Shown here: positions 1,438 through 4,510 of the stretch, piece after piece | Position numbering within the stretch: the first letter of the stretch is position 1 | Layout: every line of letters begins with the position of its first letter | IMG/VR virus record: IMGVR_UViG_3300025093_000012 | Span: 1-64,000 of that record | DNA from: a virus | Reading direction: 5' to 3' (one strand) | DNA: 64,000 bases | The notes under the pieces: model-generated | The model's database searches: none | Told to the model about the DNA's origin: nothing | The model's input: only the letters and a program-made list of their open reading frames with translations | Program-made: the position numbers and the translations under genes

Positions 1438-2050
1438 GCCTGGAACTTGCCTGCCTGTGGAAACACAGGTTCTGAAGATGTGGTGACCCATTATAGTTAC
1501 GTGGACTTTGTGTACACTAACTATGTGGTTCCACTTACACTCTGCTTAATAATGTACTACTAAACACTCCAACTCCAGTTGATAGCTGTTGCAGTTGCAA
1601 TTTAGTTACATTTTTATTTGTTGTGTACGTTAAATTGTGTGTGTGAGGTCTTAATCACCACAATTACCCACTTCTTCCCACTACTATTACTGTCTATGAT
1701 AGTAATATATAATATAGCTATAACCACTGTATTTGTGAGTTTTAATTTGAGTCTGTTTGTTTCCTACACACTCTTATAGTGGTTATGGCTTTCTCTTGTT
1801 CTTTCTCTATAGGATAAGAGCTATATCAACCGCAATATTAAAAAATATAGAAAGGCTGTACTATTAGTCAATGACACATTGGCAACAGCGTATTCCTAAG
1901 CAAGAAGACAAACTGCTTAAATAATATTCTAGTTCCAAAGGGTAGGATTGATCACCTGTAATAATTTCCTAAAAAGTGGGAGACTGTTTAACAGTTCGTA
2001 GTAGTCACATTATGTGGAACCACAACTAGAATATTAAATTAATTAACCTC
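1438..2050 (+). ncRNA. Candidate large structured RNA A (about 600 nt)
   Basis: No credible reading frame, yet many perfect or near-perfect hairpins. CCTGTG-GAAA-CACAGG (1454-1469) has a GNRA tetraloop. TAGTTA 1494-1499 pairs with TAACTA 1518-1523, extended by GTG/CAC. AATTGTG 1633-1639 plus GTGA 1643-1646 pair with TCAC and CACAATT 1655-1665. TATTACT 1685-1691 pairs with 1701-1707. A 13-bp helix joins 1716-1728 to 1778-1790 with one G-U. CAATG-ACA-CATTG is at 1869-1881 and TAAGCA/TGCTTA at 1897-1919. A 12-bp perfect inverted repeat, 1923-1934 with 2024-2035, closes the 3' domain. The GNRA loop and rightward neighbours favour the plus strand. The size is similar to ROOL-class RNAs; I cannot assign it to a family. 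Confidence 0.65.
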
Positions 2051-2270: not shown

Positions 2271-2274
2271 ATAT

Positions 2275-3190
2275 ATATTAGGTTCTATAGAGTTACCTAA
2301 GTACACAAAACTCTTGACACTGATCAGATGCATATGATCACCGTTTAAAAGGAGATACAATAGAATTCAGCCTTTAATGCGTAACCGTGTCTTATCAGAA
2401 TGGTGAGAATCCATACAACGTTTAATATATACCGTGGCTCATGTCTTGTCGTGAACAAGCATTAGTGTCTATAGAATATATTTGGCTGCTTATAGTCATT
2501 AGGATAATCCTGGTAACAGGAATAAAGTTTACACAGAAGATTAAAACAGTTCTGTGTAGGCGTTGCATTATTGCAATCCATGTAAGCAAGGTAGCAACCA
2601 CAACAATAGCCGTATGGTGGAGTTGTGATTCCATTTGTCAGTGGAATTGAGTGTGAAAGCACAATAGGGGAACTACTAGGTAATGAAGAGAACTGTAGGT
2701 ATACAGTAATCTTTGTTATTAGTGTAATAGATGTGGTAACAGCATCTTGATTCACCGTGGGTAGACATATCTACACTGGATAGTTGTACTGCGTTGTCCT
2801 CAAAAGGGATGATGGGTAGCATTCTCATGCACTATCTGGATTCTGACATCTAGTGATTTTAATTAAACAATTAGAAAAGCTTAAGTCATGAGACATCTAG
2901 TAAGGACAATTACCTTATCACCTTGCAATATAGGTGGACTTTAGATCCGCAAGATCTATGGTTAGATGAAATTAAGTTCTACATAACAGCAGGGATGTTG
3001 TGAACCGTACCAGCGGGTGTGAATAAGATGGATTCTATAACTTACTTGATGAAAAACTGGTAGCACAGGATAAACTAGCGGTAATGTTGTCTACTATGCA
3101 GTAATGCATGGTGTGTATAATAGCAAAGACATTTGTTATAATGGCAATAGTTATGGTCACTTACTCAGCCTTAACATTTTTTACTCAATC
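2275..3190 (+). ncRNA. Candidate giant structured RNA B (about 900 nt)
   Basis: More than 900 bases without a convincing gene. Hairpins in order: TTAGGT/ACCTAA 2278-2300; TGATCA twice, 2321-2340; CTTGT-CGTGA-ACAAG 2445-2459; TCCTG-GTAA-CAGGA 2508-2521; TACACAGAA/TTCTGTGTA 2530-2558; TTGCA/TGCAA 2563-2576; CACAAC/GTTGTG 2599-2627; ATTCCA/TGGAAT 2628-2647; GTGT-GAAA-GCAC 2651-2662; ACTGTA/TACAGT 2692-2707; AGATG..GTAA..CATCT 2729-2747; GTAGA/TCTAC 2761-2774; GCAT/ATGC 2819-2830; TAGATC-CGCAA-GATCTA 2942-2958; CATAACA/TGTTGTG 2982-3002; ATGCA-GTAA-TGCAT 3096-3109. Four loops are GNRA and two are C-GNRA pentaloops on this strand. Size, ornate structure, phage origin and nearby tRNA recall GOLLD/ROOL RNAs. 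Family membership is inference. Confidence 0.72.
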
Positions 3191-3214: not shown

Positions 3215-3559
3215 ATGAAAGTATTATTTAGCATGAAAAAGGATATTCTTATTCATATTCTTTTACCAATGATGGTTATTGCATTAACCGTATTAATTTT
3301 CAAAGCAGAGGTGTTTGACTGGAGTCTTATTGCCTGTGTTACACCACTTGCATTAGCTACTGTTTTCTTACAGTGGGCACAGTGGTCATCTTATCCTAGA
3401 CAATCTAGAATAAAATTTACACGTGAGTTTATTCCTTCTGTAGGATTTTCTTTCGTAGTAAATCACCATCAGAAGGGAATTGGTATTCTATTACCATGCT
3501 TCTTCTTTTGTATTGAGTTTCAAGACTTGTATTTATTTCATAAAAAGCAAGTATCATGA
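3215..3559 (+). CDS. Small membrane protein
   Basis: 114 residues from the ATG at 3215. Its A-rich leader (TTTAAAAACTACTACA) fits this genome, whereas an upstream in-frame ATG at 3104 lies inside the structured RNA region. Hydrophobic segments are at about residues 10-30 and 35-53, with a third weaker one near 85-105 (IGILLPCFFFCIEF). Its stop overlaps the next start (ATGA), so it is co-translated with another membrane protein. No family recognised. Confidence 0.7.
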   Translation: MKVLFSMKKDILIHILLPMMVIALTVLIFKAEVFDWSLIACVTPLALATVFLQWAQWSSYPRQSRIKFTREFIPSVGFSFVVNHHQKGIGILLPCFFFCIEFQDLYLFHKKQVS

Positions 3560-3783
3560 GACATATCAAGAGATTAATTGCACCAATCAAGCTATTCGTA
3601 GCTTGGTTGTTTGCACACTTGTTATCTTGGGTAACAGTGTTTATTAGCATTCCTACAGTAGAATTCTTACTTGCAAAAGAATATTGGAGTACTGCAGGTC
3701 ACATAGTATTCATCATATCATTCATTATATACTTTGCAATGACAATAGTATTCTTGTTTGATTTAAAACGTAAAGGATCATGA
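3556..3783 (+). CDS. Small two-helix membrane protein
   Basis: 75 residues; membrane segments at about 10-32 (IKLFVAWLFAHLLSWVTVF) and 46-68 (IVFIISFIIYFAMTIVFLF), ending in the basic tail DLKRKGS. It overlaps both neighbours by four bases (ATGA), forming a three-gene cassette with 3215-3559 and 3780-4319. Holin-like size and topology are possible, especially since a lysozyme-like gene follows at 4511, but there is no specific holin signature. Confidence 0.7.
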   Translation: MRHIKRLIAPIKLFVAWLFAHLLSWVTVFISIPTVEFLLAKEYWSTAGHIVFIISFIIYFAMTIVFLFDLKRKGS

Positions 3784-4423: not shown

Positions 4424-4497
4424 GCTCCCATAGCTCAACTGGATAGAGCAACAGCCTTCTAAGCTGTAGGTTCTAGGTTCAAGTCCTAGTGGGAGTA
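4424..4497 (+). tRNA. trnR: tRNA-Arg (anticodon UCU)
   Basis: A full cloverleaf can be drawn. The acceptor GCTCCCA pairs with TGGGAGT (first pair G-U). The D-arm is GCTC...GAGC, the anticodon stem ACAGC/GCTGT encloses loop CTTCTAA, and the T-arm is CTAGG-TTCAAGT-CCTAG, with discriminator A. CCA is not encoded. It reads AGA, a frequent codon in this A+T-rich genome (many Arg codons here are AGA), which explains why the phage carries it. Confidence 0.95.
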
Positions 4498-4510
4498 CTA
4501 AAGGTGAATT

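What the first reader, a model, noticed from the sequence alone, without database searches (positions are those of the whole stretch)
2275..3190. Giant hairpin-studded noncoding RNA candidate with repeated GNRA loops
About 900 bases carry no credible gene but at least sixteen short perfect stems. Four have GNRA tetraloops (GTAA at 2513, 2736 and 3101; GAAA at 2655) and two have C-GNRA pentaloops (CGTGA 2450, CGCAA 2948). GNRA loops are strand-specific, and all read correctly on the plus strand. Phages are known to carry giant ornate RNAs (GOLLD, ROOL) near tRNAs that form large symmetric assemblies; this could be a new family or a distant member in a crAss-like phage.
Basis: partly seen in the sequence, partly recalled or inferred. 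Interest (0 to 1): 0.92.

Follow-up and report, generated by a model that had tools for sequence, protein, structure and literature searches.

The report
Divergent GOLLD giant RNA in phage
A marine virus related to crAssphage carries an 0.9-kb non-coding gene for a distant version of GOLLD, a giant RNA known elsewhere to build hollow all-RNA cages, and an almost identical copy in a different phage shows that the gene travels as a separate piece.

Summary
In detail: 2274-3171 is a non-coding, strand-specific structured RNA. Fold z-score is -4.5 on the plus strand and -0.6 on the minus. There are 5 GNRA tetraloop hairpins against 0.8 expected.

It is a divergent GOLLD. Rfam's GOLLD model (RF02032) matches 2778-3171 over its full length: 73 bits, E = 5.5e-17, although the curated cut-off is 150. 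Of 98 consensus pairs, 84 form here, 55 of them with both bases changed. The 5' half carries the GOLLD 5' hairpin pair, GNRA loop included, in the same order.

A second phage (L081) has a 92.5% identical copy that ends at the same bounds, while its neighbouring genes are only 33-56% identical. The RNA therefore moves as a cassette. Its six indels are 1-2 bases long, which rules out a protein.

Most likely it is an abundant infection-time RNA that oligomerises into a GOLLD-type cage. The cage is inferred, not shown.

New here: a sub-lineage below Rfam's cut-off, in marine crAss-like phages, with a 5' module shared with a different large RNA that ends in a twister-like ribozyme (L006, L083). GOLLD's function remains unknown.

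The parts
2274..3171 (+). Whole GOLLD-like RNA cassette (about 0.9 kb)
   Evidence: 92.5% identical to L081 9687-10583 with sharp ends; flanks unrelated
2278..2404 (+). 5' module: hairpin UAGGU/ACCUA whose loop AGAGU can pair downstream with ACUCU (pseudoknot, inferred), then a GACAC/GUGUC closing helix; shared with the unrelated large RNA of L006/L083
   Evidence: alignment A4; nhmmer E 2e-8 to L006
2475..2528 (+). GOLLD 5'-domain core: hairpin UGGCU-GCUUAU-AGUCA followed by GNRA hairpin UCCUG-GUAA-CAGGA (2508-2521)
   Evidence: 72% identical and collinear with 5' domains of ordinary GOLLDs, E 4e-4; stems differ but pair
2651..2662 (+). GAAA-tetraloop hairpin GUGU-GAAA-GCAC, aligned with GUG-GGAA-CAC of ordinary GOLLDs
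2778..3171 (+). GOLLD 3' domain, full RF02032 model 1-416
   Evidence: 73 bits, E 5.5e-17; 84 of 98 consensus pairs canonical
2785..2821 (+). 3'-domain hairpin with UCAAAAG-type loop, 14 of 14 pairs kept, 11 with both sides changed
2840..2890 (+). AU-rich variable linker (no tRNA in it here)
   Evidence: position in RF02032 alignment; no tRNA
2942..2958 (+). Hairpin UAGAUC-CGCAA-GAUCUA; loop equals the GOLLD consensus CGCAA
3092..3113 (+). Hairpin with GUAA tetraloop, 8 of 8 model pairs
3155..3171 (+). Terminal GOLLD hairpin ending ..CUCAGCCU
   Evidence: GG..CUCAGCC conserved in GOLLD
4424..4498 (+). tRNA-Arg (TCT), 1.25 kb downstream

Best explanation
2274-3171 is the gene of a divergent GOLLD RNA in a marine crAss-like phage. 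Shown: a non-coding, plus-strand RNA with both GOLLD domains, exchanged between phages as a unit. Inferred: during infection it is transcribed as an abundant stable RNA, each copy folds into a 5' cap domain and a 3' ring domain, and the copies dock through loops and A-minor contacts into a closed RNA-only cage that holds the AU-rich linker inside. Inferred, less sure: the cage acts as an accessory late-infection compartment or sink for a translation-related cargo (tRNA or ribosome), helpful but not essential, which fits its patchy, cassette-like distribution. My estimates: GOLLD homologue 0.95; forms a cage 0.65; translation-related cargo 0.3.
For: Full-length RF02032 match, 73 bits, E 5.5e-17 in 64 kb and 70.9 bits in the homologue L081. 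The best other GOLLD score in the 58 relatives' whole records was 14.5 bits. Pairs: 84 of 98 canonical, 55 changed on both sides; identity 30% at paired columns, 66/96 at strongly conserved unpaired columns, 33/97 at weak ones. The 5' core is collinear with ordinary GOLLD 5' domains. Double changes kept as pairs between window and L081: 5 against 0.74 expected on the window-only fold, p = 0.0002. Minus strand shows no structure signal. GOLLD env-38 forms a 14-mer cage, and GOLLD rises during lysis (PMC12286853). GOLLD of an L. brevis prophage accumulates in lytic growth but is dispensable (PMC7567579).
Against: The score is below Rfam's gathering cut-off of 150 bits; ordinary phage GOLLDs found here mostly score 150-329. 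The pair count uses an alignment fitted by the model. On the 84 Rfam-derived pairs alone, window-to-L081 changes are not significantly structure-preserving (1 double, 4 broken, p about 0.18-0.19). The L21a self-kissing loop, GC/CG in known GOLLDs, reads GGGA/GGGGA here, so at least one half-shell contact may differ. A small model built from window and L081 alone did not recover ordinary GOLLDs. No expression data.
Confidence: 0.82

Rival explanations
1. A new, unrelated ornate RNA family that resembles GOLLD by convergence or chance.
For: Below the Rfam gathering score; sequence-only search with ordinary GOLLDs sees only a 55-base 5' patch; the 5' ~200 bases have no counterpart in ordinary GOLLDs; one kissing loop differs.
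Against: E 5.5e-17 over all 416 model positions, the same in L081, plus collinear 5' hairpins outside the modelled region.
Confidence: 0.05
2. GOLLD-derived RNA that no longer forms the 14-mer cage: a monomer or a smaller or open oligomer with another role, for example as a scaffold for phage or host proteins.
For: Loop aligned to L21a lost its GC/CG dinucleotide; extra 5' module; shortened 5' core.
Against: All 3'-domain helices are represented; conserved loop residues such as UCAAAAG, CGCAA and CUCAGCC are kept.
Confidence: 0.25
3. A long structured leader or regulatory UTR of the downstream membrane-protein genes (3215-3783).
For: It lies directly upstream, on the same strand, of small ORFs.
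Against: Moves as a unit into L081, where the next gene is different; homologues are free-standing GOLLDs; identity stops at 3170, before the gene.
Confidence: 0.05
4. Protein-coding gene or decayed gene.
For: None beyond short ORFs.
Against: 1-2 base indels between 92.5% identical copies and stops in all frames.
Confidence: 0.01

Closest known systems
GOLLD RNA (RF02032)
   Same: Full 3'-domain architecture, conserved unpaired motifs, collinear 5' hairpin pair with GNRA loop, AU-rich linker, phage setting near tRNA genes, ~0.9 kb length
   Different: 73 bits against a gathering score of 150; paired positions almost fully replaced; extra ~200-base 5' part; no tRNA in the linker; L21a loop altered; carried by marine crAss-like phages
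ROOL RNA
   Same: Large phage RNA near tRNAs that forms a cage (PMC12286853)
   Different: No match to the ROOL model at E <= 5
ICP1 ~800-base orf-less transcript (PMC7567579)
   Same: Abundant large non-coding phage RNA in an orf-less space of about 1 kb
   Different: No tRNAs in ICP1; no sequence relation tested
Large RNA of L006/L083 (this work)
   Same: Same conserved element upstream, same ~125-base 5' module, same kind of island
   Different: No GOLLD match; ends in a twister-P1-like ribozyme

Membership tests
GOLLD | Significant full-length match to the RF02032 covariance model (E < 1e-5, criterion of PMC12286853) | tested here: met
   E 5.5e-17, positions 1-416; E 4.5e-18 in L081
GOLLD | Rfam curated gathering score of 150 bits | tested here: not met
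   73 and 70.9 bits. A curator's cut-off, not a structural feature; hence filed as a divergent sub-lineage outside RF02032's curated boundary
GOLLD | Conserved 3'-domain secondary structure | tested here: met
   84 of 98 pairs canonical, 55 doubly changed; all helices represented
GOLLD | 5' domain upstream, less conserved | tested here: met
   Collinear hairpin pair at 2482-2521
GOLLD | Self-complementary GC/CG dinucleotide in L21a (bridge B8) | tested here: inconclusive
   Loop reads GGGA here and GGGGA in L081, but the alignment there is of low confidence
GOLLD | Kissing of L20 with J13/15 (bridge B7) | tested here: inconclusive
   CGCAA loop present (2948-2952); partner strand could not be assigned
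GOLLD | Phage-borne, near tRNA genes | tested here: met
   tRNAs at 4424, 8252 and 8345; viral record
GOLLD | Homo-14-mer RNA cage | not testable with these tools
   Needs cryo-EM or mass photometry
GOLLD | Accumulates during lytic infection | not testable with these tools
   No RNA-seq available
ROOL | Match to the ROOL model | tested here: not met
   No hit at E <= 5
OLE | Match to the OLE model | tested here: not met
   No hit at E <= 5

The most novel reading that the evidence does not exclude
One recombination-prone site in marine crAss-like phages holds interchangeable giant RNAs of different classes (GOLLD-type in the window and L081; a non-GOLLD, twister-terminated RNA in L006/L083) that share a common 5' pseudoknot-like module. 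That would be a modular large-RNA system in which a shared 5' part gives a common function (stability, delivery or docking) and the body is swapped.
Probability: 0.25. Interest if true: 0.75.

Novelty: new variant of a known kind. Interest (0 to 1): 0.52.

Why it matters
GOLLD is one of very few natural RNAs shown to self-assemble into a large symmetric cage, and nobody knows what the cage is for. A member with nearly all paired positions replaced, an altered self-kissing loop and an extra 5' module is a natural experiment: it tells which contacts the cage needs. Clean cassette transfer between phages with 33-56% identical neighbouring proteins shows the RNA works as a self-contained unit. It also shows that Rfam's cut-off hides real GOLLDs in environmental phages.

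Tried and rejected
1) Protein gene: rejected by frame-breaking indels.
2) Minus-strand RNA: no structure signal.
3) ROOL and OLE: no model match.
4) Homologues by DNA similarity in annotated phages and plasmids: none.
5) GOLLD in the 58 syntenic relatives by the genome search: none, but the same search missed L081, whose match is real, so that negative is weak.
6) More window-type copies by three exact patterns in IMG/VR: only L081; other hits were chance. Hits of one pattern in bacterial genomes were isolated 18-mers.
7) Reciprocal covariance model from window and L081, last 92 bases: finds only those two significantly; too little information.
8) Partner of loop L20 for the B7 kissing contact: could not be assigned by eye; dropped.
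9) Sigma-70 promoters and intrinsic terminators: no more than shuffles.

Full report
Observation. The stretch contains many short stems and plus-strand GNRA loops, more than shuffled sequence gives: five GNRA tetraloop hairpins with stems of at least four pairs against 0.8 expected and two on the minus strand; 13 perfect stems of five or more pairs against 5.5. As RNA it folds 4.5 standard deviations below shuffles on the plus strand, and not on the minus strand. Two of the listed loops need correction: GTAA at 2736 is not a closed tetraloop, and CGTGA at 2450 is not conserved in the homologue.

Identity. At gathering thresholds Rfam reports only tRNAs. With an E-value threshold it reports GOLLD at 2778-3171 over the entire model (E 5.5e-17 for the whole 64 kb, both strands). 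In the same 64-kb scan the only other strong matches are the three tRNAs and their antisense look-alikes. The alignment was counted pair by pair: 98 consensus pairs, 84 canonical here, 22 unchanged, 7 changed on one side, 55 changed on both sides. Identity is 30% at paired columns but 66 of 96 at strongly conserved unpaired columns. This is the pattern of an old homologous RNA whose helices have been replaced while loops and junctions stayed. Caveat: the alignment is fitted to the model, so the E-value, not the pair count, is the formal test.

Second copy. A pattern from the 5' end found L081 (IMGVR_UViG_3300024581_000252), which holds a 92.5% identical copy. It scores 70.9 bits with the same model. 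Identity begins at window 2274 and ends at 3170, exactly the RNA. The neighbouring genes that do match between the two phages are 33-56% identical, and flanking DNA is unrelated. The RNA has therefore moved between related phages as a discrete cassette. The copies differ by 63 substitutions and six indels of 1-2 bases, so no frame is conserved. On the fold predicted from the window alone, five pairs change on both sides and stay paired against 0.74 expected (p = 0.0002); 17 break against 23 expected. On the 84 Rfam-derived pairs the same test is not significant (1 double change, 4 broken), so covariation inside the sub-lineage is suggestive, not decisive.

5' domain. RF02032 models only the 3' half. 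A GOLLD 3'-end pattern collected 59 IMG/VR stretches; 50 records were tested (48 of these plus L081 and L083), and 35 pass the RF02032 cut-off at 157-329 bits. Compared with their 5' parts, window 2475-2528 matches collinearly at 72% (E 4e-4). A profile made only from ordinary GOLLDs also finds this spot in window and L081 (E 0.006 and 3e-4). It contains two hairpins present in nearly all 15 non-redundant GOLLDs: a 6-base-loop hairpin whose stem differs (UGGCU/AGUCA here, GGGCC/GGUCC there), and a GNRA hairpin (CCUG-GUAA-CAGG here, CCAC-GAAA-GUGG there). Upstream of it the window RNA has about 200 extra bases.

Context. The phage is crAss-like. A search with the nearby helicase gave 58 relatives, mostly syntenic. 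They share a conserved DNA element at about window 1605-1850, just after gene 1150-1437. Downstream of it lies a mosaic island of short cassettes that differ between close relatives. The GOLLD sits in this island. No relative in that set showed GOLLD, but the search used misses L081-like copies, so their absence is not proven. In L006/L083 the element is followed directly by the same ~125-base 5' module (88% over 43 bases; nhmmer E 2e-8) joined to a different ~600-base structured RNA (z -2.5 on plus, -0.5 on minus) that ends in a twister-P1-like ribozyme (43 bits, E 8e-7, below its cut-off of 67).

Mechanism. From the published structure (PMC12286853) GOLLD's 5' domains form caps and 3' domains form rings of a 14-mer cage whose variable linker lies inside; the function is unknown. 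The window RNA has both domains, the linker and most conserved loops, so cage formation is the best-supported reading, by inference. The loop aligned with L21a lacks the GC/CG dinucleotide, so the contact between half-shells may differ. A late-infection accessory compartment is the most likely role: GOLLD rises during lysis and is dispensable in one prophage (PMC12286853; PMC7567579), and the cassette distribution here fits an accessory gene. Cargo is speculation.

Novelty. No paper in the held library connecting GOLLD with crAss-like phages was found; subscription papers and the supplements were not searched. I class it as a new variant of a known kind: a deep GOLLD sub-lineage outside Rfam's curated boundary.

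Noticed in passing
window about 1605-1850; also L003-L058 and 63 stretches: Strongly conserved non-coding DNA element (AATATATAATATAGCTATAA, then TTCTCTCTCTATAGGATAAGAGACATAGTAACCGCAA) found once at this place in most of the relatives and in more than 60 IMG/VR stretches. Consensus RNA folding is negligible, so promoter or replication origin is more likely than an RNA.
   Followed up: partly
L006 2535-3192, L083 9478-10137: About 600-base structured non-coding RNA with no Rfam match except a twister-P1-like ribozyme at its 3' end (L006 3136-3190, 43.4 bits); shares its 5' ~125 bases with the window's GOLLD.
   Followed up: partly
window 1850-2040; L003/L005 equivalent: Possible second structured cassette (AATATTCTAGTT ... 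AACTAGAATATT arms, fold z -1.9); its 5' part is shared with L003 and L005.
   Followed up: partly
L072 143-590 minus (in the record of L054): A relative carries a phage-encoded tmRNA (75.9 bits, above cut-off; tag DHQAIGAKIINMAFANARVAVAA by ARAGORN) and a tRNA-like gene with an unassigned anticodon.
   Followed up: partly
islands downstream of the conserved element in L003-L058: Hypervariable mosaic island: short ORF and non-coding cassettes with repeated ~25-base boundary sequences, shuffled between close relatives. Looks like a recombination hot spot for accessory cassettes.
   Followed up: partly
L085, L094, L095, L097, L104, L110, L111, L121 (upstream of GOLLD): A shared TTAACTTTGTAAAA block, resembling the Bacteroidota promoter (TAnnTTTG), lies about 100-120 bases before the first conserved GOLLD hairpin; it would place the transcription start of ordinary GOLLDs. 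Not present before the window's RNA.
   Followed up: no
L105 (G081) GOLLD linker: A tRNA-like sequence (TAGCTCAGTGGTAGAGC...GGTTCAAATCC) lies inside the GOLLD linker, as known for some GOLLDs.
   Followed up: no
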